Of a stretch of 48,331 bases of DNA, positions 16,200-46,974 are shown in pieces. Location of the stretch: the NCBI GenBank assembly GCA_903821395.1, contig CAIJLJ010000142.1:1-48331 (forward strand). Direction: 5' to 3'. Position 1 is the stretch's first letter. Each line of letters starts with the position of its first letter. The notes below the pieces were generated by a model, which saw only the letters and a program-made list of their open reading frames with translations, ran no database searches and was not told where the DNA came from. The stretch is from an uncultured Solirubrobacterales bacterium. GTDB taxonomy: Bacteria > Actinomycetota > Thermoleophilia > Solirubrobacterales > Solirubrobacteraceae. A program made the translations under genes and the position numbers.

Positions 16200-16321
16200 C
16201 GCCGCGGCCACGCCGACGTGCGCAAAACACCGATCGGTAGTAGGTTTCGCACTAGGGCTTGATCGTAAATGCCGCAGGGCCGATGGGGGTTGGATATCAC
16301 TGACTTATTGCAAACCGGGGG

Positions 16322-17473
16322 GTGCTGCGCTTGAGTACCGGCGTGCCGCGGTTGATCGAGCCCTCCTCGGGGCTCACCGCCGATGATCCGCTCGAGTTTG
16401 GCGCGATCGCGGGCCGAACCCCTTGGCAACTTTTCTGGCGCAACTTCAAGAAGGATCGCGTTGCTATCGCTGGGCTTATCTTCATTGCGCTGCTGGTGAT
16501 CGCTGCGATCGCAGCTCCACTGATCACCAAGTTGCTCGGAGCTTCGCCGCCAAATCAGATCAACACGTCAGCACTCGATTCGTTCGGCACGCCGACCGGC
16601 CCCAGCTCAGAACATCTCTTTGGCGTTGATCCACTCGGCCGCGACGTCCTGAGCCGAACGCTCTACGGCGCCCGCGTGTCGCTCGAGGTCGCTCTGATCT
16701 CCACCGGGCTGGCAACATTGATCGGCGTCGTGCTCGGCCTTGTCGCCGGTTTCTTCCGCGGCTGGGTTGACTCGGGGATCTCGCGGCTGATGGATGTGCT
16801 GCTGGCGTTTCCCGCCCTACTACTGGCACTTGGCCTCGCTGCGGCGTGTTCTTTGGGAGACGGCTGCGCCATCAGCACGCCTCTGCAAGGGGCCGGGGTC
16901 GCAACGATCGTGGCGGGGCTGATCGGCGCCGCACTCTCGCTCGCTCGCGGCCGCCGCGAGATGGTTGGAGCGTCGCTAATTGTGGTCGGTTTTGGTCTTT
17001 TCTTCCTATTAATCGGGACGTTCTTCACGATCAAGATTGAGCCCGGAGCGGGGGTCGTGATTTTCGTCATCACGCTCGTCAGCTGGACCTACATCGCACG
17101 AATCGTTCGCGGTCAGGTGCTGTCGCTGCGTGAGAAAGAGTTTGTCGAGGCTTCGCGTTCGCTCGGGGCTTCCGACGCGAGAATCGTCTTCAAGGAGATC
17201 CTGCCGAACCTGATTGTGCCGATCATCGTCTACGCGACGCTGATCTTGCCAACGAACATCCTGCTCGAGGCGGCTCTCTCGTTCCTCGGTGCTGGAGTTC
17301 AGCCACCGAACGCGTCCTGGGGCGCGATGATCGCCGATGCGACAGGAGTCTTTGACAGCGCATGGTGGTACATGCTGGTACCGGGGCTGGCGTTGCTCTT
17401 CACAGTGTTGGCGTTCAACGTCGTCGGCGACGGCCTCTCTGATGCCCTTAACCCGCGTCAGGAAGGGTCGTGA
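16322..17473 (+). CDS. Peptide-type ABC transporter permease (DppC-like) with inserted segment
   Basis: Inner-membrane permease of an oligopeptide/dipeptide/nickel-type importer. It has the DppC N-terminal pattern: a hydrophobic segment at about 48-66, then the soluble HLFGVDPLGRDVLSR block (98-112). The EAA loop EFVEASRSLGASDARI is at 273-288 and the ASWGAMI segment at about 331-337. DppC proteins are usually 280-300 residues; this one is 383. An extra stretch at about 176-242 holds two cysteines, a hydrophobic segment, a basic SLARGRREM turn and a further hydrophobic segment. It splits the normal core between LAFPALLLALGLAAA and VSWTYIARIVRGQVLSLR. The start is GTG at 16322. It is the first gene of a five-gene transporter operon. 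Confidence 0.88.
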   Translation: MLRLSTGVPRLIEPSSGLTADDPLEFGAIAGRTPWQLFWRNFKKDRVAIAGLIFIALLVIAAIAAPLITKLLGASPPNQINTSALDSFGTPTGPSSEHLFGVDPLGRDVLSRTLYGARVSLEVALISTGLATLIGVVLGLVAGFFRGWVDSGISRLMDVLLAFPALLLALGLAAACSLGDGCAISTPLQGAGVATIVAGLIGAALSLARGRREMVGASLIVVGFGLFFLLIGTFFTIKIEPGAGVVIFVITLVSWTYIARIVRGQVLSLREKEFVEASRSLGASDARIVFKEILPNLIVPIIVYATLILPTNILLEAALSFLGAGVQPPNASWGAMIADATGVFDSAWWYMLVPGLALLFTVLAFNVVGDGLSDALNPRQEGS

Positions 17474-17501
17474 TGTTCAAAGGTTTTGGTTCAACAACAA
17501 A

Positions 17502-17516
17502 CCGGCCGAAGGCCGG
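17502..17516 (+). repeat. Short hairpin just ahead of the binding-protein gene
   Basis: CCGGCC-GAA-GGCCGG is a perfect 6-bp stem with a three-base loop. It is followed at once by the GGAAGGAAGG ribosome-binding region of the solute-binding protein gene. It may block 5' decay of the downstream transcript, or modulate ribosome access. This role is inferred. Confidence 0.4.
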
Positions 17517-17532
17517 GAAGGAAGGTCTAACG

Positions 17533-19302
17533 ATGAAACCGATTCGCATCTGTTCAGCAGCGCTTCTAGCGCTGATCCTGAGCGTTGCCGTTACTGCTTG
17601 CGGCTCAAGCAGCAGCAGCGACACCGGAACCAAGGTTGGCGCGGTTCCAACAACCCAATCGCTCACCGGCAAAACCGGTGGCGCATTGAAGGTGCTTGCG
17701 AGCTCTGACGTCGATTACATCGATCCAGGGGCTGCCTACTACCAGTTCACGTTCATGGTTAGCTACGCAACTCAGCGGCCGCTCTACTCGTTCGGTCCCG
17801 ATGACGCCGTGAACGCGGTTCCTGACCTTGCGACGCAGGCGCCAGCGGTTTCTTCCGACGGCAAGACGGTGACGGTGCACATCAAGCCGAACGTCAAGTT
17901 CAGCCCCCCGGTCAACCGTGCAGCTACATCGGCCGACGTCAAATACGCGATTGAGCGTGGATTCCTGCCGACCGTCGCGAACGGTTACGCGGGCGCTTAC
18001 TTCGGCGACATCATCGGCGTCAAAGCTTTCCAAGACGGCAAGGCGAGCGAGATCTCAGGGATCGACACGCCGAACTCGACAACGATCGTTTTCAACCTCA
18101 GTCGTGGTAGCGGTGGCGTTGTCGCAGGCGCTCTCGCCCTGCCGCTAAGCGCGCCGGTGCCGAAGGAGTACGCAGCGAAGTTCGATGCTAAGAACCCTTC
18201 GACCTACGGCGTCAACCAGGTTGCGACCGGCCCGTACATGATCCAAGCTGACGCCAGCGGTGCGTTGACCGGTTATGAGCCAGGGAAGAAGATTGACCTC
18301 GTTCGTAACCCGAACTGGAACCGCGCGACCGACTATCGCAAGGCCTACCTCAACACAATCAACATTGAGGAAGGCAACGACGATACGACGGTTGCATCGC
18401 GCCAGATTCTGAAGGGGAACGCGCAGATCAATGGTGACTTCGGTCCGCCTCCGCCGGTTCTCAAGCAGATCGTGAACCAGACTCCCGATCAGCTCGCGCT
18501 GACGCCATCAGGTGGTCTTCGCTACGTATCGATGAACACCACGTTGGCTCCGTTCAACAACCTAAACGTGCGTAAAGCCGTGCTAGCGGTCTTTGACCGT
18601 GACGCGATGCGCGCGACTCGTGGCGGCCCGCTGCTTGGACCGATCGCCAACCATTTCATCCCGCCAGAGATCGGTGGCTTCAACGAGGCCGGTGGGCTCA
18701 ACGGGACGGGAGTTGATTTCCTCAACTACCCGAAGGGCAACCTTGCTCTTGCGAAGGAGTACATGAAGAAGGGTGGATTCCCATCCGGCATGTACACCGG
18801 CAGCCAAGAGCTGTTGATGGTCGGCACCTCGGGCGGCGCGGCGCAGAAGTCGGCCGAGTTGGCTGCCGCACAGTTCGAGAAGCTTGGCTTTAAGCCGAAG
18901 CTTCGACTGGTCACGCAGGACTCGATGTACACAAAGTTCTGCAACGTGCCAAAGGCCAAGGTCGTGATCTGCCCGAATGTTGGTTGGCTGAAGGACTTCG
19001 CCGATCCGCAGACGATTCTCGACCCGACCTTCAACGGGAAGAACATCGTTGACGTCAACAACTCGAACTGGCCTCAGCTCAACAATGCTGCTGTCAACTC
19101 GGCGATGGACAGCGCCGAACTGGTTGTTGGTTCCGGTGCCCGCAATAAGGCCTGGGCAGCGATCGATCGTCAGATCACCGCGCTCGCCCCGGCCGTGCCA
19201 TGGATCTGGGACGACTCGCCGAACATCCGCAGCACCGATGTTGCAGGCGTGATCAACAAGTTCAATGGCAACTGGGACCTCTCCTTCACTTCGCTGAAGT
19301 AG
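17533..19302 (+). CDS. Peptide-type ABC transporter substrate-binding lipoprotein
   Basis: Extracytoplasmic binding protein of the SBP_bac_5 (DppA/OppA) family, delivering substrate to the adjacent permeases. From the ATG at 17533 there is a lipoprotein signal with lipobox VTAC and acylated C23, then a Ser-rich linker. The mature part has the family pattern: VPDLATQAPAVSSDGKTVTVHIKPNVKFS near the N-terminus, a SADVKYAIERGF block, and late IWDDSPNIRS. Total length is 589 residues. AAGGAAGG lies 7 bases before this ATG. A GTG/ATG at 17470-17475 in the same frame overlaps the permease stop and would add about 20 residues ahead of the signal peptide, so I rejected it. The ligand is not predictable. 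Confidence 0.93.
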   Translation: MKPIRICSAALLALILSVAVTACGSSSSSDTGTKVGAVPTTQSLTGKTGGALKVLASSDVDYIDPGAAYYQFTFMVSYATQRPLYSFGPDDAVNAVPDLATQAPAVSSDGKTVTVHIKPNVKFSPPVNRAATSADVKYAIERGFLPTVANGYAGAYFGDIIGVKAFQDGKASEISGIDTPNSTTIVFNLSRGSGGVVAGALALPLSAPVPKEYAAKFDAKNPSTYGVNQVATGPYMIQADASGALTGYEPGKKIDLVRNPNWNRATDYRKAYLNTINIEEGNDDTTVASRQILKGNAQINGDFGPPPPVLKQIVNQTPDQLALTPSGGLRYVSMNTTLAPFNNLNVRKAVLAVFDRDAMRATRGGPLLGPIANHFIPPEIGGFNEAGGLNGTGVDFLNYPKGNLALAKEYMKKGGFPSGMYTGSQELLMVGTSGGAAQKSAELAAAQFEKLGFKPKLRLVTQDSMYTKFCNVPKAKVVICPNVGWLKDFADPQTILDPTFNGKNIVDVNNSNWPQLNNAAVNSAMDSAELVVGSGARNKAWAAIDRQITALAPAVPWIWDDSPNIRSTDVAGVINKFNGNWDLSFTSLK

Positions 19303-19330
19303 AGATTCCGTTAGCAGCTAAATCGCGAAG

Positions 19331-19358
19331 GGTCCCTGCCGCAGTCGCGGCGGGGACC
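19331..19358 (+). repeat. Strong intercistronic hairpin after the binding-protein gene
   Basis: GGTCCCTGCCGC pairs with GCGGCGGGGACC across an AGTC loop: 12 paired positions with one T-G wobble, 28 bases after the stop codon. No T-run follows, so it is unlikely to terminate fully. Such hairpins after binding-protein genes commonly protect the upstream mRNA so the binding protein is made in excess of the permeases. Confidence 0.6.
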
Positions 19359-19384
19359 GGACGCGGCTGCTTGGTCGTGATCGA

Positions 19385-20347
19385 ATGATCCGCTACATCC
19401 TCCGCCGCCTTCTGTGGGTCGTATTCCTGCTCTTCGCAGTCAGCTTCATCACCTTCGTGATCTTCTATCTGCTGCCCTCGGCCGACCCGGCCGCCCTGCG
19501 CGCTGGACGCCAACCGAACCCGGCTCTCGTCGCATCGATACGCCACCAGCTCGGACTCGACCAACCTTGGTACGTGCAGTACGGGCGCTACATGAAGAAC
19601 CTGATCTTCCACTTCGACTTCGGCTTCAGCTACCAGAATGGAGTGCCGGTTCGCCAGCTGATCTTCAGCCGCCTGCCGGCGTCTATCTCGCTTGCAGCCG
19701 GCGCAGCCTTTCTGTGGCTCGTGGTCGGTATCGGTGTCGGCATCATCGCTGCGGTGCGGCCGCGGACGAAGCTCGATCGCGCATCAATGGGGCTAGCGCT
19801 GGTTGGTATTTCGGCCCCGGTCTACTGGCTCGGCCTGGTAGCGCTCTACCTGTTCTCATCCGACATCGGCCTGATCCCGATCCTGCCGGGCGCAAACTCA
19901 TACGTTCCGCTCAGCGACGACCCGGTGGCGTGGTTCACCTCACTGATCATGCCGTGGTGCGTGCTCGCCGTTAGCTTCGCGGCCTTCTATTCGAGATTGC
20001 TGCGCGGCAACCTCACCGAGGTCCTCAGTGAGGATTACATCCGAACTGCTCGGGCCAAAGGGCTCTCTGAGCGCCGCGTCGTATTTCGCCACGGCCTGCG
20101 CTCGGCGATCACGCCGATCGTGACAATTTTTGGACTCGACTTAGGCATTCTGCTCGGGGGAGCAATCCTCACGGAGACGGTTTTTAACATCCCAGGGATC
20201 GGCCGACTCTCGTACTCCTCGATCGTTCGCAGCGATCTGCCAGTGATTCAGGGGACAGTTCTGCTCGGTGCGTTCTTCATCGTCTTCGCCAACCTCTTCG
20301 TTGACATCTTCTACGCCTTCCTCGACCCGCGGGTGCGTTACGAATGA
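19385..20347 (+). CDS. Peptide-type ABC transporter permease (DppB-like)
   Basis: Second membrane subunit of the importer. At 320 residues it fits DppB/OppB. The start MIRYILRRLLWVVFLLFAVSF is a typical first transmembrane segment. The following periplasmic part includes LGLDQPWYVQYGRY. Further hydrophobic segments follow, with the EAA loop DYIRTARAKGLSERRVVFRHGLR at about 217-239. The late GGAILTETVFNIPGIG and the end FYAFLDPRVRY are DppB hallmarks. The ATG lies 26 bases after the intercistronic hairpin, and the gene overlaps the next ATPase gene by 4 bases (ATGA). Confidence 0.94.
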   Translation: MIRYILRRLLWVVFLLFAVSFITFVIFYLLPSADPAALRAGRQPNPALVASIRHQLGLDQPWYVQYGRYMKNLIFHFDFGFSYQNGVPVRQLIFSRLPASISLAAGAAFLWLVVGIGVGIIAAVRPRTKLDRASMGLALVGISAPVYWLGLVALYLFSSDIGLIPILPGANSYVPLSDDPVAWFTSLIMPWCVLAVSFAAFYSRLLRGNLTEVLSEDYIRTARAKGLSERRVVFRHGLRSAITPIVTIFGLDLGILLGGAILTETVFNIPGIGRLSYSSIVRSDLPVIQGTVLLGAFFIVFANLFVDIFYAFLDPRVRYE

Positions 20348-21336
20348 GCGCCCTACTCGCGGTTCAAGATCTCAAAGTCAGCTTCGACACGGAAGACGGC
20401 GTCGTCCACGCAGTTGAGGGGATCTCGTACGAGGTTAAGCCAGGAAAGACGCTTGGCATTGTCGGTGAATCGGGCTCCGGCAAGACGGTCGGCACGCTCA
20501 CGATTATGGGCTTGACGCGCGCGGCCAATACTCAGATCAGCGGTAAAGCGATCTTCGATGGCGAGGATCTACTCAGCGCCACCGAGCAGCAGATGCGTGC
20601 GATCCGTGGCGACGAGATCGCGATGATCTTCCAAGACCCGCTCTCCTCACTGCACCCGTTCTTCACTATCGGCTCGCAGCTAGTTGAGGCGATTCAGGTC
20701 CACAACAAGGTCAGCAAGGCGGCCGCCCGAACGCGTTCAGCCGAGCTGCTGACGATGGTCGGCCTCTCCGACGCGCGCGACCGCCTCAACCGCTACCCGC
20801 ACGAGTTCTCCGGCGGTATGCGCCAGCGCGTGATGATCGCGATGGCGCTCGCGAACGAACCACGCTTGCTGATCGCCGATGAGCCGACGACCGCGCTCGA
20901 CGTGACGGTTCAGGCGCAGATCCTTGAACTGATCGCAGATCTTCAGGCCCAGACTGGGACGGCGATGATCATCATCACGCACGACCTCGGTGTCGTCGCA
21001 GAGGTGGCCGATGAGATCGCCGTGATGTACGCCGGGCGGATCGTCGAACAGGCAAGTGCCACCGAACTCTTTGCCAATCCGCAGCATCCGTACACGCAGG
21101 GGCTTCTGGCATCGATTCCGCGGCTTGACCGTGACCGCACTGCGGGCCTCGACCCGATCGCTGGCCGCCCGCCGAGCTTGATCGCGCCACCGAGCGGCTG
21201 CGCCTTCCATCCGCGCTGTCCTCGCGCTTTCGACCGCTGCTCGGCCGATCTGCCGCCGCTAGAGCGCGCCGCAGCGGGCTCAGAGCACCTCGTCGCCTGC
21301 CTGCTGAGCCCAGAGGAAAGGAGCGTGAAGCGATGA
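20344..21336 (+). CDS. Peptide-type ABC transporter ATPase (DppD/OppD-like)
   Basis: Cytoplasmic ATPase of the importer. At 330 residues it has Walker A GESGSGKT (41-48), the Q loop in [13 protein letters not shown] signature FSGGMRQRV and Walker [13 protein letters not shown]. The switch His is in ITHDLG. The C-terminal oligopeptide-transporter extension holds [14 protein letters not shown] and the cysteine-containing [14 protein letters not shown]. That Cys pattern is usual in this branch and in some members binds an iron-sulfur cluster. Both gene ends overlap neighbours by 4 bases, giving tight translational coupling. Confidence 0.95.
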
Positions 21337-22325
21337 GCGCCGCCGATCCGCTGGTTGAGGTTCGTGACCTTGAGATGCACTTCCCGCTAACGCGCGGCGT
21401 AATCTTCCAACGCCAGTACGGGGCAGTGCGGGCTGTTGATGGAATTTCGTTCAGCGTTGCTCGCGGCGAGACCTTCGGCATAGTCGGGGAGAGCGGCTGC
21501 GGGAAGAGTACGACCGGCAGGCTGATCATGCGGCTGCTCGAACCAACCGCTGGCCAGCTCTTCTTTGAGGGCGAGGAGATCACCCACCACGGGCGCCGCC
21601 AGTTATCGACCTTGCGCCGCGATGCGCAGATGGTTTTTCAGGACCCATACTCATCGCTCAATCCACGCAAGACAGTCGGTTCAATTATCGCCGAGCCGTT
21701 CATCATCCATCGCGAGGCGCGCGACGCCGAGGAGCGGCGCAAGGAGGTACGCGAGCTGATGGATCGCGTCGGCCTCAACCCGGAGCATTACAACCGCTAC
21801 CCGCACCAGTTCTCCGGTGGTCAACGGCAGCGGATCGGGGTCGCGCGCGCGATCGCGCTGAAGCCGAAGTTGCTCGTTGCCGATGAGCCTGTCTCGGCGC
21901 TCGACGTTTCAATTCAGGCCCAGATCATCAATCTGCTGCAGGATCTTCAAAGTGAACTTGGGCTGACACTGATCTTCATCGCTCACGACCTCAGCGTCGT
22001 GCGCCACATGTGTGACCGAATCGCGGTGATGTATCTCGGCAAGATCGCCGAGCTGGCCGAATCAGAGCGCTGCTTCGCGCAGCCTCGCCACCCGTACACG
22101 GGTGCGCTGCTGGCGTCGGTCCCTGTGCCCGACCCGGCGCTCGCGGCGGCAGGTCGCCGGCCTGTGCTCAAGGGTGACGTGCCGTCCCCGAGCGCTCCAC
22201 CGCCCGGCTGCCGCTTCCACACCCGCTGCCCGAAGGCTCAGTCGCTTTGCGCGCAGGAGGAGCCGCCGCTGCGCGAACTGCCCGGCGGCTCCTTCGCCGC
22301 CTGCCACTTCCCGCTCGGCGACTAA
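21333..22325 (+). CDS. Peptide-type ABC transporter ATPase (DppF/OppF-like)
   Basis: Second ATPase, pairing with the one before it. It is 330 residues, with Walker A GESGCGKS (52-59), the [11 protein letters not shown] block typical of OppF, signature [10 protein letters not shown], Walker [13 protein letters not shown] and switch His in IAHDLS. The C-terminal extension has [16 protein letters not shown] and [14 protein letters not shown]. It begins with an ATGA overlap and ends in a four-base overlap (CTAA) with the convergent hypothetical gene. It completes a full import system: two permeases, two ATPases and one lipoprotein. Confidence 0.95.
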
Positions 22326-22981: not shown

Positions 22982-23407
22982 TCACGACGGTTCTACTTCA
23001 AGCATCAACGTGACCGGACCATCGTTCACCAGCTCGACCTCCATCGCCGCGCCAAAGACGCCGCTCTCGGCATCCAGCTGCCGGCAGAACCGCTCGTAGA
23101 GCGGTTCGGCGAGCGCCGGCGCTGCCGCATCGGTGAAGCTCGGGCGATTGCCTTTAGCGGTGTTGGCGTAGAGCGTGAACTGACTGACGCATAAAACCTC
23201 GCGCTCGCCAAGCGCTTCGCTCATCTTCCCCTCGCTGTCGTCAAAGATTCTTAGCGCCCGAACCTTCTCGGCGAGCTTGTCGCAGCAGCGCTCGTCGTCG
23301 CCCGGCCCAACGCCCAGCAGGACGCAGAGCCCGTGGCCGATCGCGCCGACCGTTTCCCCATCGACGCGCACCGAGGCGCTGCTGACCCGCTGTATTAGTG
23401 CGCGCAT
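22982..23407 (-). CDS. dtd: D-aminoacyl-tRNA deacylase
   Basis: Removes D-amino acids (and glycine from mischarged tRNA-Ala) attached to tRNA, protecting translation. From the ATG at 23407 it is 141 residues, the normal length. It begins MRALIQRVSSASV as expected. It contains the two active-site motifs SQFTLYA and, near the C-terminus, NDGPVT with the Gly-Pro dipeptide that enforces chirality. The frame stays open upstream for 42 more codons, but these are Ser-rich antisense to the AEC gene and not part of the family. It lies 10 bases after the AEC gene. Confidence 0.96.
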   Translation of the reverse strand: MRALIQRVSSASVRVDGETVGAIGHGLCVLLGVGPGDDERCCDKLAEKVRALRIFDDSEGKMSEALGEREVLCVSQFTLYANTAKGNRPSFTDAAAPALAEPLYERFCRQLDAESGVFGAAMEVELVNDGPVTLMLEVEPS

Positions 23408-23417
23408 CGCCGCCAGC

Positions 23418-24347
23418 CTACAGTCCGCCGGCGAGTTCGACGACGCCCGCAGCGACGATGATGATCGCTGTGCTCCAAGCGATTGCACCGACGATGATCT
23501 TGAGGTTGAGTCCGAAGATGTGTCCAACAGCAAGGCCGGTGATGCCGCTCGCCATCCCGGCCTGAATCAAAAAAGCCGAGGGGACTTCGATCACGAAACT
23601 CGAGAGGCCGAGCATCACGCCAGGGGCAATCAGCAGCCTTAGTCCCAGCGCTGTTAAGACGGGGGCCGTTAGCTCTGGTGGAAAGATCCGCGTCCCCTCC
23701 TGGTCGTGCTCGAGCATCAGGTTGACGCCGACGGCGAAGAAGCCGAGCGGTGCGATAACGACTGCCATCACGGTTGCGATCTCGCGCGCCCAGTCAGGGC
23801 TGAGCCAGCCTGGGGCGAGGATCGCCGCGACAAGTGCGATTAGCGCTGGGTTGCGGATGAAAAAAGTTTTCGTCCTGGCCCTTGCGCCCTCGCCGGCGCG
23901 GGTTCCGAAGGCGGCGCCGATTGCGAAGCCCCCAATCAGTGCGATCGGTGCCGTCACCGTCGTGTCGTAAGTGACGGCGACGCCGATCGAGTCGTTGCCA
24001 AGCAGCAGTGCGGTGAGCGGGATTCCGAGGTAGCCGGTGTTGGCGAGACCGACGGCGATCATCATCGCTCCCGTTCCAGCACGCGGCAGTTTCAAGAGGC
24101 GCGAGCCGATAAACCAAGCCAGCGTGATGACGACAATTCGCTCTGTCCAACCGAAGACGATTCCGGCGCCCAGCCCGGTCGTCAGCTTCAGGTGGCTGAC
24201 TGTGAAGAAGACCACGAGCGGCATCGCGACGTAAGCGAGGGTGTCGAGGACCCTGCGCGAAAGGTTCAGAGCCCCTTCGCCCCAGCGCCGCTCGGATCCG
24301 ACTCCGATCAGCAGTGCAAGCAGACTCGTGAATGCGACTGCGATCAC
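23418..24347 (-). CDS. AEC-family transporter (auxin efflux carrier-like)
   Basis: Membrane permease of the AEC family, whose bacterial members move small organic acids such as malonate or malate. It is 309 residues with about ten hydrophobic segments in two halves around a basic loop (GTRAGEGARARTK near 147-159). Family features include LANTGYLGIPLTALLLG in the first half, an FFIRNPALIALVAA block opening the second half, and FLIQAGMASGITG in the second. The start is GTG at 24347, 13 bases after the GNAT gene. The substrate cannot be assigned. Confidence 0.85.
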   Translation of the reverse strand: MIAVAFTSLLALLIGVGSERRWGEGALNLSRRVLDTLAYVAMPLVVFFTVSHLKLTTGLGAGIVFGWTERIVVITLAWFIGSRLLKLPRAGTGAMMIAVGLANTGYLGIPLTALLLGNDSIGVAVTYDTTVTAPIALIGGFAIGAAFGTRAGEGARARTKTFFIRNPALIALVAAILAPGWLSPDWAREIATVMAVVIAPLGFFAVGVNLMLEHDQEGTRIFPPELTAPVLTALGLRLLIAPGVMLGLSSFVIEVPSAFLIQAGMASGITGLAVGHIFGLNLKIIVGAIAWSTAIIIVAAGVVELAGGL

Positions 24348-39517: not shown

Positions 39518-40832
39518 ATGGATCAACTCGCCGATCACGCGACGCGCCTGCTTAGCCGTCTGATCGCCCACAACACTGTCAATCCCCCTGGTAACGAGCG
39601 GGCGTTGCAGGAAGAGCTCGCAGCCGATCTGAAGGATGCGGGTTTCGAAGTGACGCTGGTCGGGCGAACTGAAGAGCGTCCTAACCTCGTTGCGCGGCTG
39701 CGCGGCGCCGCCGACGGCCCAACGCTATGCCTCCTTTCGCACTGCGACACGGTGCTCGCCAACCCTGATGAGTGGACCCATGACCCGTGGTGCGGCGATG
39801 TGATTGATGGCGAACTTTGGGGCCGCGGCGCGCTCGACATGAAGTCGCAGACGGCGGCCGAGGTAGCGGCCGGAATTGAGTTGGCGAAGAGTGGCTGGCG
39901 CCCGGCGTCTGGCGACCTGCTGATCGTCTGCGTTGTTGACGAGGAGACCGGCGGTGCTGACGGTGTCGCCTGGCTCTGCGAAAACCATCCCGATCTTGTT
40001 CGCTGCGACTACTCGCTCAATGAGGGCGCCGGCGCCTTCTTTGAGCTCGGTGGCGAGCGGCTCTACGGCGTCTGCGTCGCCGAGAAGGGCGTCTGCCGTT
40101 TCACGATCACGACCGACGGGGTTGCCGGCCACGCCAGCAACCCGCGCTTCGGTGACAACGCGTTGCTGAAGCTCGCTCCGCTAATCACCGCACTAGGTGA
40201 GTGGGATCCGGCTTACGACCTGACCGACGGCGCCAGCGCGCTTATGACCGACCTTGGCGCGCCGGTCGAAGGCGGCGACGTAGGCGCCGCGCTTGATCTC
40301 CTGCGCCAGCGCGAGCCGCTGCTGGCTGCTTTCGTCGAGCCAATGCTCGGCCTCACCTTCGCCCCAACTGTGATCTCCGCCTCAGAGAAGATCAACGTGC
40401 TGCCGTCGCAGGCCCAGCTGCGGGTTGATTGCCGCACGCCGCCCGGCCTTGGCGAAGAGCTGGTCCGCAAACGCGTGACAGAAGTGCTTGGAACCGAGGG
40501 CTATCGGCTGGATTTCACCGAGCAGTCGATCGGCAATGGTTCGCCAGTCGAAAGCCCGCTGATGGATCTGCTCAGTGGCTGGATCGACCGCGAGGACCCG
40601 GGCGCGCGCACAGTGCCGATCGTGCTGCCAGCTTTCACCGACTCGCGGACGATCCGCGCGACCTTCCCCGGACTCCGTCTCCTACGGCTTCTTCCCGATG
40701 CGCCACACCTCGCTGGCAGAGATGTGGCCACTGATCCACGCTCCCGACGAGCGGATCGACGTTCGCGACCTGGCCTTCGCCGCTCACTGCTTCAGCGACA
40801 TCGCGCAGGAGCTACTCGGCTCGGCTTCGTAG
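39518..40832 (+). CDS. M20-family metallopeptidase with apparent +1 frameshift
   Basis: Zinc-dependent amidohydrolase/peptidase of the ArgE/DapE/CPG2 type. Conserved ligands are in LLSHCDTV, GRGALDMKSQ, VVDEETGG and LNEGAG, with a dimerisation domain at about 195-310. In the first frame sense is lost after F383: the expected PDSVSYGFFPMR and PLIHAPDERID, with the last metal His, continue one frame over and end at 40832. Removing one C from the CCCC at 40666-40669 restores a 437-residue protein. Unshifted, the frame runs to 40930 and overlaps the epimerase gene. The cause may be a sequencing error, a true mutation, or +1 slippage at CCC-G. The substrate is unknown. Confidence 0.85.
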
Positions 40833-40845
40833 ACTGCGCAGAAGA

Positions 40846-41256
40846 ATGTTTGATCGCATCGACCATGTGGGCATCGCCGTTGAGGCAATCGACCCTGCGC
40901 TTGAGCTTTACGAAGCCGCCTATGAGCTGAAGCTCGTCCACCGCGAAGTCGTCGAGGAGCAGGGAGTTGAGGCTGTGCTGCTCGACGTCGGCGAGAACCA
41001 CATCGAGCTACTCCAGCCGCTCAGCCCCGACACCCCCGTCGGTCGCTTCCTTGAGCGCAGTGGCCCGGGAATGCATCACATCGCTTACCAAGTCAGCGAC
41101 ATTGACAGCGAGCTTGAGCGGCTGCGCGCTGCTGGAATTGAGCTAATTGACAAGCAGCCGCGGGTTGGTATCCGTGGCTCGCGAGTTGCTTTCGCCCACC
41201 CCAAATACACCGGAGGCGTTCTGACCGAGATCGTCCAGCCGGCGGAGGATCACTGA
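40846..41256 (+). CDS. mce: Methylmalonyl-CoA epimerase
   Basis: Interconverts (S)- and (R)-methylmalonyl-CoA in propionate/succinate metabolism. It is a 136-residue vicinal-oxygen-chelate protein. FDRIDHVGIAV begins with metal ligand H7. GPGMHHIAYQV (about 73-83) supplies a second His, and LTEIVQ near the end supplies E128. The repeat of two beta-alpha-beta-beta-beta units is visible. Methylmalonyl-CoA mutase is not in the window. The gene ends in a one-base overlap (TGATG) with the next small gene. Confidence 0.94.
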   Translation: MFDRIDHVGIAVEAIDPALELYEAAYELKLVHREVVEEQGVEAVLLDVGENHIELLQPLSPDTPVGRFLERSGPGMHHIAYQVSDIDSELERLRAAGIELIDKQPRVGIRGSRVAFAHPKYTGGVLTEIVQPAEDH

Positions 41257-42612: not shown

Positions 42613-43474
42613 CCCCTGAGGCCACTTCGAGCCGCTCCGCCAGGCGGTTCATCCCAAGCTCCCGCGCCGCCGCCGCGCCGCGCTTTGCGTCGAGCGGCGC
42701 ATCCTTTGGTCGCTTCAGTTTGATCGGCTGTAGCGTCGCCATCTCTTTGAAGGCGCGCAGCAAGTCCGGGTCGTCGGTCAGAGCGGAGCGCGTTCGCTCC
42801 GTCATCTCAGTCGTGGGGTCTCCAGCCGCTGCCAGTACCGCCTCGAGCGAGTCGTACTGCTCCAGCAGCAGTGCCGCCCCTTTCTCACCGATTCCTTTTG
42901 CGCCGGGAATGCCATCTGACGGGTCACCGCGCAGCGCGATCAGGTCGGGAATCTGATTCGGATCAACGCCGCTTCGTTCGCGGACCTCGTCGGGTCCGAT
43001 CAGCTGCGGCCCGCCGCGCGATGGATAGAGCACCGTGACCAGCTTTGAGGCGCATTGGAACATGTCGCGGTCGCCGCTGAAGATCAGCGTCTTGCCGCCA
43101 GCCTTGCTCTCGAGCGCCGCCAGCGAACCGAGCAGGTCGTCGGCCTCGAGGTCGTCGGCATCGAGTGAACTCCATCCGCAAGCGGCGAGGAACTCGGGCG
43201 CAAGTTCCCACTGGTGCGCAAGCTCCGGCGGCATCGGCGGGCGGTCGGCGTGGTACGCGGGGAAGGCCTTGACGCGGTAGGCGCCGGCTTCGGCACCGAA
43301 GCAGCAGACGACTGCCCGTGGGCCGTAATCAGCGACCGCTTGAAGCAGCATGTTGGCCGTTCCGAGCAGGGCGTTGACAGGCTTGCCATCTGCGCCCTTG
43401 ATCGACTTTGGCAGCGCGAAGAAGGCTCGGTAGAGCAGCGACGGCGTGTCGACAGCTAGGAGTGGGGTGGCCAC
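42602..43474 (-). CDS. 5'-3' exonuclease (PolA N-domain-like flap nuclease)
   Basis: Stand-alone nuclease homologous to the 5'-3' exonuclease domain of DNA polymerase I, acting on RNA primers or flaps. It has 290 residues from the GTG at 43474: LLAVDTPSLLYRAFFALP, the DADDLEADDLLGSLA metal cluster, SGDRDMFQ, and ALRGDPSDGIPGAKGIGEKGAA with the helix-hairpin-helix. I rejected the upstream TTG-type extension of 20 residues. The chosen start matches the family N-terminus and lies 7 bases after a TAGCCT box. Actinobacteria often carry such a separate enzyme in addition to PolA. Confidence 0.92.
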   Translation of the reverse strand: MATPLLAVDTPSLLYRAFFALPKSIKGADGKPVNALLGTANMLLQAVADYGPRAVVCCFGAEAGAYRVKAFPAYHADRPPMPPELAHQWELAPEFLAACGWSSLDADDLEADDLLGSLAALESKAGGKTLIFSGDRDMFQCASKLVTVLYPSRGGPQLIGPDEVRERSGVDPNQIPDLIALRGDPSDGIPGAKGIGEKGAALLLEQYDSLEAVLAAAGDPTTEMTERTRSALTDDPDLLRAFKEMATLQPIKLKRPKDAPLDAKRGAAAARELGMNRLAERLEVASGAKE

Positions 43475-43481
43475 GAGCGGC

Positions 43482-43487
43482 AGGCTA
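43482..43487 (-). promoter_or_regulatory. -10 box of probable leaderless exonuclease promoter
   Basis: TAGCCT on the minus strand ends 7 bases before the GTG at 43474. It is part of a compact divergent promoter region with the ABC1 kinase box at 43515-43520. Confidence 0.45.
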
Positions 43488-43514
43488 CCGTGATACCGAC
43501 CAAGCGGCCGCCCG

Positions 43515-43520
43515 TACAAC
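43515..43520 (+). promoter_or_regulatory. -10 box of probable leaderless ABC1 kinase promoter
   Basis: TACAAC ends 7 bases before the ATG at 43528. No Shine-Dalgarno sequence is present. Only 27 bases separate it from the minus-strand box at 43482-43487, so RNA polymerase binding in the two directions is likely mutually exclusive. Confidence 0.45.
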
Positions 43521-43527
43521 GGTCGCA

Positions 43528-44940
43528 ATGCCAATGGCTGACGAAAACCAAGACGACATCAACGAGACCAGCAAGCTGCCCAGCTCAAGGCTGGCGCGGA
43601 CGGCCAAGTTTGGCTCGCTCGTCGGTGGCCAGAGCGCGAAGTGGGCGGCGACCAGCGCGATCAACCGCCTGCGCACCGAGGAACGCGCCGACGAGGCCAC
43701 CCAGGCGCGCGCCTTCGACCTCGCCGACCAGCTCGTCAAGCAGCTCGGCCAGATGAAGGGCGCGGCGATGAAGATCGGCCAAGTGCTCTCAACCGTTGAC
43801 TTTGAGCTGATCCCTGAGGACGACCGCGAGGAGTTCAAAGCACGCCTCGCCGAGCTGCGCGACAACGCTCCGCAGGTCGCCTTCAAGGACATGAAGAAGG
43901 TCGTAGAAGCGGACTATGGCGAGCCGATTAGCGCAGTCTTCGCCAGCTTCGACGAAGAGCCGATCGCCGCAGCCTCGATCGGGCAGGTTTATCGCGCCAC
44001 CACGCACGATGGCGACGAGGTGGCGGTGAAGGTTCAGTATCCCGGAGTTGCCGAGGCGGTCGAGACCGACATGCGCAATGTGGGGATGCTGGTGCCGCTA
44101 CTCAAGCGGCTGGCGCCGGGCATCGACGCCAAGGCTTTGCTTGCCGAGCTGCGTGAGCGGATCGCCGAGGAGCTCGACTACGAACTCGAGGCCGCCAACC
44201 AGCGCCAGATAGCGCGCGCCTACCGCGGCCATCCCTTCATCCGCATTCCTGCGATCTTCGCGTCACTCTCAACCCGGCGCGTGCTCGTCAGCGAGTACGT
44301 CGCAGGACAGAGCTTCGCGCAGATGAAGGATCGAAGCGACGAGGAGCGCGACCTCGCCGGCGAGATCGCCTTCCGCTTCTTCTTCGGCCTGTTGATGCGC
44401 GAGCGGCTCGCGCTCGGCGATCCCCACCCAGGCAACTACATCTTCTGCGACGACGGCCGCGTCTGCTTCCTCGACTTCGGGCTTATTCGCCGCGTTCCCG
44501 AGCAGTACCTCGACGGCGAGCGGGCATTGGCTCGCGCGGTGATCGAAGGCGACGCCGAGCAGACGCACCGCTGGCTCTCCGAGCTTGGCTACCTGCCCGA
44601 GCCCGACCAGTTTGAGCCTGCGCGCGTTCTTGAGCAGCTGCAGACTGCTGGCGAGTGGTACTTCACGACCGGCTACCGAAGGCTCACTCCGGAGTACGTG
44701 CGCAACGCAATCGAGGTTGGAAGTTCTCCCCGCTCTCCCCACTACGACTACATGCGCAAACAGACGCTTCCGCCTGAGGCGCTTCTGATGCGCCGCATGG
44801 AAGGGCTGCTTTTTAGCGTCCTCGGTGAGCTGCGGGCTGGCGGCGACTGGGGTCGACTGTCGCTCGAATACGTCGCTGGCGAGTCGCCATCCACGCCGCT
44901 CGGTGAGCAGGACGCGGACTTTTTTGCCTCGCGTGCGTAG
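43528..44940 (+). CDS. ABC1/UbiB-family atypical kinase
   Basis: Protein-kinase-like ATPase of the UbiB/ADCK family, linked in other organisms to quinone or isoprenoid lipid metabolism. The 470-residue protein has the family KxGQ motif (MKIGQVLST) and the Ala-rich loop AAASIGQVYRA that replaces the Gly-rich loop. It also has VAVKVQYPG with the catalytic Lys, DPHPGNYIF and LDFGLI. The membrane anchor seen in UbiB is not obvious at the C-terminus. The frame is open upstream to 43408, but that stretch lies inside the exonuclease promoter and coding region. I use the ATG at 43528; a second ATG at 43534 is also possible. Confidence 0.9.
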   Translation: MPMADENQDDINETSKLPSSRLARTAKFGSLVGGQSAKWAATSAINRLRTEERADEATQARAFDLADQLVKQLGQMKGAAMKIGQVLSTVDFELIPEDDREEFKARLAELRDNAPQVAFKDMKKVVEADYGEPISAVFASFDEEPIAAASIGQVYRATTHDGDEVAVKVQYPGVAEAVETDMRNVGMLVPLLKRLAPGIDAKALLAELRERIAEELDYELEAANQRQIARAYRGHPFIRIPAIFASLSTRRVLVSEYVAGQSFAQMKDRSDEERDLAGEIAFRFFFGLLMRERLALGDPHPGNYIFCDDGRVCFLDFGLIRRVPEQYLDGERALARAVIEGDAEQTHRWLSELGYLPEPDQFEPARVLEQLQTAGEWYFTTGYRRLTPEYVRNAIEVGSSPRSPHYDYMRKQTLPPEALLMRRMEGLLFSVLGELRAGGDWGRLSLEYVAGESPSTPLGEQDADFFASRA

Positions 44941-45485: not shown

Positions 45486-46964
45486 ATGACAACGATTAGC
45501 GCGGCAGACGAACGTTCAGCCCTCGAAACTGTCGAGCGGCGCCTCTTTATTGGTGGCCAGTGGCGCGACGCCAGTAGCGGCGCAACGATGGCCGTCGAAG
45601 ACCCAGCAACCGGCGAAACCTTGGTCGAAGTGGCCGACGCCACACCGGAGGATGCCGACGCCGCTCTGGCCGCAGCCGACGCGGCTTTCGCCAGCTTCCG
45701 CACCATGCCGCCACGCGAGCGCGGCGAGATTCTACGCCGCGCCTACGAGCTGATGACCGAGCGGACCGAGCACTTGGCGCTGATCATGACCCTGGAGATG
45801 GGCAAGCCACTGGCTGAGGCGCGCGGCGAGGTTGCTTATGCAGCCTCGTACCTTCGCTGGTACGCCGAGGAAGCAGTGCGGATCAACGGCCGATTCCAGA
45901 CAGCTGAAAATGGCGGCAGCCGCGTGCTGACGATGCGCCAAGCGGTTGGGCCCTGCCTCTTCATCACGCCATGGAACTTCCCGCTCGCGATGGGCACGCG
46001 CAAGGTCGGCCCGGCAATCGCGGCCGGCTGCACGGTCGTCGTCAAGCCTGCCAAGCAGACGCCGCTCTCGATGCTCGCTATGGCCCAAGTATTTGAGGAT
46101 GCCGGCCTTCCCGCAGGCGTGCTCAACGTAGTCTGCGGCTCGAGCTCCGGCTCGCTGATGGCGCCGCTGATCGCCGATCCGCGGCTGCGGAAGCTTTCCT
46201 TCACAGGCTCGACCGCAGTTGGCAAGCAACTGATCGCGCAGTCAGCCGAGCAGATTCTGCGCGTGTCTATGGAGCTTGGCGGCAACGCCCCGCTGATCGT
46301 CTTTGACGACGCCGATATGGACGTCGCGCTTGACGGCGCAATGATGGCGAAGATGCGCAACGGCGGCGAGGCCTGCACCAGCGCCAACCGTATTCTCGTC
46401 CAGGATTCCATCGCCGACGAGTTTGCGCAGCGGCTCGCCGAGCGGATGGGCGCGATGGTCGTCGCGCGAGGCACCGAAGCCGACGCTCAGGCCGGTCCGC
46501 TGATCGACGACGTTGCGGTCGCCTCAGTCAAAGAGCTCGTTGACGACGCCGTCGCCGGCGGCGCAAAGACGCTTTGTGGTGGCGCGCCGATCGAAGGGCC
46601 CGGTCACTTCTTTGCTCCGACCGTCTTGACCGATGTTCCCGACAACGCGCGGATTCTCGGTGAAGAGATCTTTGGCCCGGTCGCCCCTATCCGGACCTTC
46701 GCAACGGAGGAGGAGGCGATCACTGCCGCGAACGCCACCGAGTATGGGCTCGTCGCCTATCTCTTCACGCGCGACATAGCGCGCGGACTGCGCGTGATCG
46801 AGGGCCTCGAAACGGGCATGATCGGCCTCAACCAGGGGATGGTCAGCAACGCTGGTGCTCCTTTTGGCGGCGTCAAGCAGTCCGGCTACGGGCGCGAAGG
46901 CGGCCACGAAGGAATCGACGAATACCTCTCAACGAAGTACGTCGCGATCAACGTCGCCGAGTAG
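45486..46964 (+). CDS. NAD(P)-dependent aldehyde dehydrogenase (succinate-semialdehyde dehydrogenase-like)
   Basis: Oxidises an aldehyde to the acid with NAD(P). It has 492 residues and all catalytic features: N164 in PWNFPLAM, K187 in VVVKPAK, the FTGSTAVGK loop (239-247), E263 in MELGGNAP and nucleophile C297 in GGEACTSANR. EEIFGPVAPI comes late. The pattern MELGGNAPLIVFDDADMD and the end PFGGVKQSGYGREGGHEGIDEYLSTKYV are closest to GabD-type succinate-semialdehyde dehydrogenases, but the substrate is inferred. It is convergent with fumC with 10 bases between stops. Confidence 0.93.
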   Translation: MTTISAADERSALETVERRLFIGGQWRDASSGATMAVEDPATGETLVEVADATPEDADAALAAADAAFASFRTMPPRERGEILRRAYELMTERTEHLALIMTLEMGKPLAEARGEVAYAASYLRWYAEEAVRINGRFQTAENGGSRVLTMRQAVGPCLFITPWNFPLAMGTRKVGPAIAAGCTVVVKPAKQTPLSMLAMAQVFEDAGLPAGVLNVVCGSSSGSLMAPLIADPRLRKLSFTGSTAVGKQLIAQSAEQILRVSMELGGNAPLIVFDDADMDVALDGAMMAKMRNGGEACTSANRILVQDSIADEFAQRLAERMGAMVVARGTEADAQAGPLIDDVAVASVKELVDDAVAGGAKTLCGGAPIEGPGHFFAPTVLTDVPDNARILGEEIFGPVAPIRTFATEEEAITAANATEYGLVAYLFTRDIARGLRVIEGLETGMIGLNQGMVSNAGAPFGGVKQSGYGREGGHEGIDEYLSTKYVAINVAE

Positions 46965-46974
46965 CGGCGCGGCG

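What the first reader, a model, noticed from the sequence alone, without database searches (positions are those of the whole stretch)
40664..40672. Single-base frameshift in the M20 peptidase at TTC-CCC-GGA
The protein is perfect up to F383, then the expected C-terminus (including the last metal-binding His in PLIHAPDERI) continues in the +1 frame to a stop 13 bases before mce. One extra C in a run of four explains it. Slippage of tRNA-Pro from CCC to CCG would give exactly the expected FPDSVSYG, so programmed +1 frameshifting is formally possible. Sequencing or assembly error, or a fresh mutation, is likelier.
Basis: seen in the sequence. Interest (0 to 1): 0.5.

Follow-up and report, generated by a model that had tools for sequence, protein, structure and literature searches.

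The report
Stray one-base insertion in peptidase gene
One peptidase gene in this metagenome-assembled bacterium carries a lone extra base that throws off its reading frame; the related genomes examined do not have it, so it is most likely an assembly error or a fresh mutation rather than a programmed recoding signal.

Summary
The M20-family gene starting at 39518 reads like its orthologues to F383, meets TTC-CCC-GGA at 40664-40672, and its expected C-terminus continues in the +1 frame to a TAG at 40830-40832, 13 bases before mce.

In 28 of 28 orthologous loci read across the site, the gene is in one frame. None of 8 syntenic same-genus genomes covering the site has the extra base. It is the only mid-gene frame break I confirmed in the window. 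In 98.8 kb of the genome's other contigs I found one other frame change specific to this genome, at the very end of a threonine synthase gene. The same nine bases are read in frame 0 in this genome's smc and purQ. Three proline tRNAs and the glycine tRNA for GGA are present, and the local fold is unremarkable. The displaced tail is still largely conserved, so the break is recent or not real. An extra G fits as well as an extra C. Error and recent mutation cannot be separated without reads.

The parts
39518..40669 (+). M20-family metallopeptidase/deacylase, frame-0 part up to the site (residues 1-384)
   Evidence: Pfam Peptidase_M20 and M20_dimer over cut-off; best NCBIfam matches PRK07906, PRK09133 and DapE-ArgE, all below their cut-offs; 86-96% identical in 9 same-genus loci, one of them partial
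40664..40672 (+). TTCCCCGGA, the one-base frame break
   Evidence: extra base relative to 8 of 8 same-genus genomes aligned there
40668..40832 (+). Displaced C-terminal 54 codons plus TAG, in the +1 frame, with the conserved His407
40670..40930 (+). Out-of-frame continuation of frame 0 (residues 385-470), running 85 bases into mce
   Evidence: not the reading of any of the 28 loci read
40846..41256 (+). methylmalonyl-CoA epimerase (mce), downstream neighbour
   Evidence: TIGR03081 145.4 bits, over cut-off 114.95

Best explanation
An isolated, non-programmed one-base insertion, seen only in this assembly, interrupts an otherwise ordinary M20 peptidase gene near its 3' end. It is most likely an assembly or sequencing (consensus) error in a run of C and G; a recent real mutation is the close second. 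If real, frame-0 translation would replace the last 53 residues, including the conserved His407, with an unrelated 86-residue tail and should abolish activity. Shown: the break, its absence from the relatives read, and a largely intact tail. Inferred: the cause and the loss of activity.
For: 28 of 28 orthologous loci that could be read across the site are in a single frame (of the 30 loci, L002 is the window itself and L011 ends before the site). 8 of 8 same-genus genomes aligned across the site lack the base. Only mid-gene break confirmed among 47 genes chosen in the window, 43 of them testable against the best-covering relative. The tail in the +1 frame has no stop and pN/pS 0.03-0.18 against 8 relatives. 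The same 9-mer is read in frame 0 in smc and purQ. tRNA-Pro GGG, TGG, CGG and tRNA-Gly TCC are present. Folds z -1.17 and -0.82.
Against: Frame breaks at C/G runs are not general here: the window has 82 GGGG and 70 CCCC runs and one confirmed mid-gene break, which speaks against a systematic error and leaves a real mutation open. Against the two nearest relatives the tail ratio (0.14, 0.16, on three changes) is above the head's (0.05, 0.06), so slight relaxation is not excluded. No reads were available.
Confidence: 0.93

Rival explanations
1. Sequencing, assembly or consensus error: the cell has an intact 437-codon gene.
For: Single base in a C/G run; seen in one 180-contig assembly only; tail free of stops and largely conserved.
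Against: Few other breaks specific to this genome in the sampled contigs, so the assembly is not generally poor at such runs.
Confidence: 0.57
2. Real, recent frameshift mutation that inactivates the peptidase in this strain or population.
For: Indels in short C/G runs are ordinary mutations (general knowledge). Other sporadic indels exist: a 19-base deletion in surE of the relative G011 and a net two-base loss at the end of this genome's own threonine synthase gene. A young mutation would leave the tail intact.
Against: The gene is held at strong constraint (head pN/pS 0.05-0.15) and present in one frame in all 28 loci read, so a fixed loss would be unusual.
Confidence: 0.36
3. Real mutation partly rescued by spontaneous +1 slippage of proline tRNA from CCC to CCG, giving some full-length enzyme.
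For: CCC is described as a slippery codon; an E. coli rpoB insertion was suppressed at 5% on CCC-AGG-C (PMC7022156, listing and passages). Slipping here would give the orthologue sequence.
Against: In the published case the next codon is AGG, the least used in E. coli. Here it is GGA, 10.9 per 1000 codons in the window's genes, with its own tRNA. The sequences called particularly slippery are CC[C/U]-[C/U]; this is CCC-G (PMC4519876, passages). The same 9-mer is in frame 0 in smc and purQ.
Confidence: 0.05
4. Evolved, programmed +1 frameshifting that regulates the peptidase.
For: Only that a CCC-to-CCG slip would restore the frame.
Against: 0 of 28 orthologous loci have the shift; no strong structure at or after the site; the A-site codon is neither a stop nor without a tRNA; identical 9-mers in conserved genes are read normally.
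Confidence: 0.02

Closest known systems
Sporadic single-base indels (error or mutation) in assembled genes (general knowledge)
   Same: One base, in a short C/G run, in one genome of those read, with the rest of the gene intact.
   Different: Nothing found; the reads behind the base are unknown.
E. coli rpoB +1 frameshift with intrinsic suppression at CCC-AGG-C (PMC7022156; listing and passages seen)
   Same: A one-base insertion with an in-frame CCC where slippage could restore the frame.
   Different: There the CCC is followed by a very rare Arg codon and suppression was measured; here it is followed by GGA and nothing was measured.
Programmed +1 frameshifting of the prfB type (recalled)
   Same: A +1 slip would restore a longer conserved product.
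   Different: No stop in the A site, the shift is absent from the orthologues, and no Shine-Dalgarno-like stimulator was seen by eye just upstream.

Membership tests
Programmed +1 ribosomal frameshifting | Shift arrangement conserved among orthologues | tested here: not met
   0 of 28 loci out of frame at the site
Programmed +1 ribosomal frameshifting | Slip-prone P-site codon with a stop or starved codon in the A site | tested here: inconclusive
   CCC is called slippery, but the next codon GGA is neither a stop nor without its tRNA, and the motif is CCC-G rather than CC[C/U]-[C/U]
Programmed +1 ribosomal frameshifting | Stimulatory RNA structure or upstream element | tested here: not met
   Fold z-scores -1.17 (downstream, 80 nt) and -0.82 (spanning, 101 nt); an upstream element was looked for only by eye
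Programmed +1 ribosomal frameshifting | Both products made in the cell | not testable with these tools
   Needs proteomics or a reporter
Peptidase family M20 | Catalytic and dimerisation domains | tested here: met
   PF01546 and PF07687 over cut-off in the frame-0 part
Peptidase family M20 | C-terminal metal-binding His present in the frame-0 product | tested here: not met
   His407 is invariant in 9 of 9 aligned orthologues; in the window it lies in the +1 frame. It lines up with a His near the end of DapE chain 8f8o_A, in a stretch of 5.5 bits that is not significant by itself (i-Evalue 60). That this His binds metal is recalled.
Transcriptional slippage site | Long A or T run (recalled) | tested here: not met
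   The run is four C

The most novel reading that the evidence does not exclude
The extra base is real and fixed in this species, and ordinary ribosomes slip from CCC to CCG often enough to keep the peptidase working: a newly born recoding site caught before any other genome shows it.
Probability: 0.04. Interest if true: 0.45.

Novelty: not a real feature. Interest (0 to 1): 0.06.

Why it matters
Mainly as a caution: a neat-looking CCC slip site in a single assembly is explained by one stray base, which a check of relatives settles quickly. If the base proved real and rescued by slippage, it would be a natural example of a recoding site at birth.

Tried and rejected
Programmed +1 shifting was tested by orthologues, use of the same 9-mer elsewhere in the genome, the tRNA set, codon use and RNA folding, and rejected. 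An old pseudogene was judged unlikely because the tail is free of stops and largely conserved. A second break at window 2236, suggested, was rejected: it lies between the genes at 1828-2154 and 2299-2784, both on the minus strand. Other pairs flagged were set aside from their positions relative to the genes, not one by one. In one search the three other flagged pairs (G012 at 22985-23533; G004 and G009 at 43408-44937) lie in 5' parts that overlap neighbouring gene calls, so I read them as start mis-calls.

One search listed 64 places where the frame of an alignment changes, in the window and five other stretches; most are seen against a part of the relatives. Six passed a coding test. Besides the M20 site, four were inspected: one is a 19-base deletion in G011's surE, three lie between or at the ends of ORFs. 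The sixth, L104 11272, was looked at by position and lies outside the neighbouring plus-strand ORF. The coding test is blind near gene ends. A protein-level check of the five stretches and a closer look showed one that it missed: L106 at about 921, reported under 'noticed'. I had first taken the other contigs to be free of such changes, and that was wrong. I left the odds as they were, because this change fits error and mutation alike.

A scan of viral contigs for the site found nothing. Reads of this genome could not be consulted and the metagenome collection allowed no scans, so error and mutation could not be separated. One paper search returned one long-read assembly paper, of which I saw only the listing and which I did not use.

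Full report
What is there. The window is the whole of contig C142 of a 1.98-Mb, 180-contig genome assembly (94% complete). Public records with close copies of the gene are metagenome assemblies titled Solirubrobacteraceae, Solirubrobacterales or Actinomycetota, and three titled, oddly, Bifidobacterium breve. The gene at 39518 has the Peptidase_M20 and M20_dimer domains. At 40664-40672 it reads TTC-CCC-GGA, after which frame 0 runs on for 86 residues to 40930, into the next gene, mce (mce named by TIGR03081). The +1 frame from 40668 gives the C-terminus expected from relatives and ends at 40830-40832.

Relatives. A protein search of 41 genomes (own included) gave 30 loci. L002 is the window and L011 ends before the site; the other 28 all read through the site in one frame to a stop at residue 430-447. 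Matches that came without a locus were not read. In the genus, 17 genomes were searched with the DNA around the site: 14 match including the window's own, three (G002, G005, G016) do not. A motif script showed the site in one frame in 8 of the 14 other loci, among them G008, whose gene is split over two contigs; the other six did not fit the motif. Five of those six belong to genomes read, and the sixth is a second, weak match in G012. So 13 of 13 other genus members with a match have been read in one frame.

How often such breaks occur. I chose 47 genes in the window and followed the frame against ten relatives, 216 gene-by-genome pairs. The M20 gene broke against the 9 relatives that align across the site; three other pairs were flagged and read as start mis-calls. 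I then compared five other stretches of the same genome, 98.8 kb from four contigs, with six relatives. Of 64 places where an alignment changes frame, six, the M20 site included, passed a coding test; apart from the M20 site these were a 19-base deletion in G011's surE and places between or at the ends of ORFs. A second, protein-level pass and closer looks brought out one change specific to this genome that the coding test had missed: a net loss of two bases, against 3 of 3 covering relatives, in the last codons of a threonine synthase gene. So such changes are few but not unique to the M20 gene. Stretches with no aligned relative could not be tested, and most of the 64 places were judged by script or by position rather than one by one.

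State of the displaced tail. Between the window and eight relatives, pN/pS is 0.03-0.18 in the tail (54 codons) and 0.05-0.15 in the head. Three residues differ from G012, and each occurs in another relative. Against the two nearest relatives the tail ratio (0.14 and 0.16) is above the head's (0.05 and 0.06), while G012 differs from G011 and from G010 by no residue there; the numbers are small. The gene has not visibly decayed, so the break is recent or not real.

Could ribosomes slip here by design? The same nine bases occur four times in this genome. In smc and purQ they are read in frame 0 (families); the fourth lies in a 100-residue frame with no Pfam match. tRNA-Pro with anticodons GGG, TGG and CGG and tRNA-Gly TCC were found among 43 loci scanned. 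GGA is used 10.9 times and CCC 8.4 times per 1000 codons in the window's genes. Folds of 80 and 101 bases are unremarkable. In published work CCC is slip-prone and a very rare next codon went with 5% suppression in E. coli rpoB (PMC7022156), the sequences CC[C/U]-[C/U] are called particularly slippery (PMC4519876), and tRNA-Pro is unsettled on CCC-U (PMC7577736); of these I saw listings and passages. The site here is CCC-G. Nothing shows that slippage happens at this site.

What would be lost. His407 of the intact orthologue is invariant in nine of nine aligned proteins and lines up with a His near the end of a solved DapE in a stretch that is not significant by itself. In the intact orthologue the Pfam match runs to residue 430; in the window's frame 0 it ends at 379. 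If the base is real, the enzyme is probably dead; this is inference.

Verdict. An ordinary one-base insertion: error about 57%, real recent mutation about 36%, mutation with some spontaneous rescue about 5%, programmed about 2%. These shares are judgement; no reads were seen.

Noticed in passing
L106 (G000:C43:1-20000), minus strand, about 921; ORF 641-2176: A net loss of two bases against 3 of 3 covering relatives (G004, G007, G012) in the last codons of a threonine synthase gene (TIGR00260) removes its stop and fuses it in frame with the next ORF, a ThiS/SAMP1-like ubiquitin-type protein (PF02597, NF041918); in G007 the first gene stops at an overlapping ATGA. A real gene fusion or another indel error.
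   Followed up: partly
L032, L037, L038 (CAMCVN010000018.1, CAMDBT010000010.1, CAMDLG010000021.1): Three public assembly records titled Bifidobacterium breve carry this gene at 86-96% protein identity to the window; the titles look wrong.
   Followed up: no
46961-46970: The window has about ten bases between two convergent genes where G012, G010 and G004 have about 1.6 kb and G007 about 2.5 kb. In G010 that stretch encodes a 530-residue protein that reads like a secreted subtilisin-type protease (named by eye from its motifs).
   Followed up: partly
40668-40829: Synonymous differences are fewer in the last 54 codons of the M20 gene than in the rest, also between relatives (G000/G012 pS 0.18 against 0.45; G012/G011 0.15 against 0.33). 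The sample is small; a constraint near the mce start is possible.
   Followed up: no
16244-22290: No long blastn match in the syntenic contigs of G012 and G010, but from 17291 on it aligns with G001: a block present in some relatives only.
   Followed up: no
L105 about 7822 (against L201, G011): G011 has a 19-base deletion inside surE, which is intact in this genome and in five other relatives.
   Followed up: partly
G018:C33:90212-91349: A more distant relative has an M20 homologue matched in pieces, two of them with a TGA inside.
   Followed up: no
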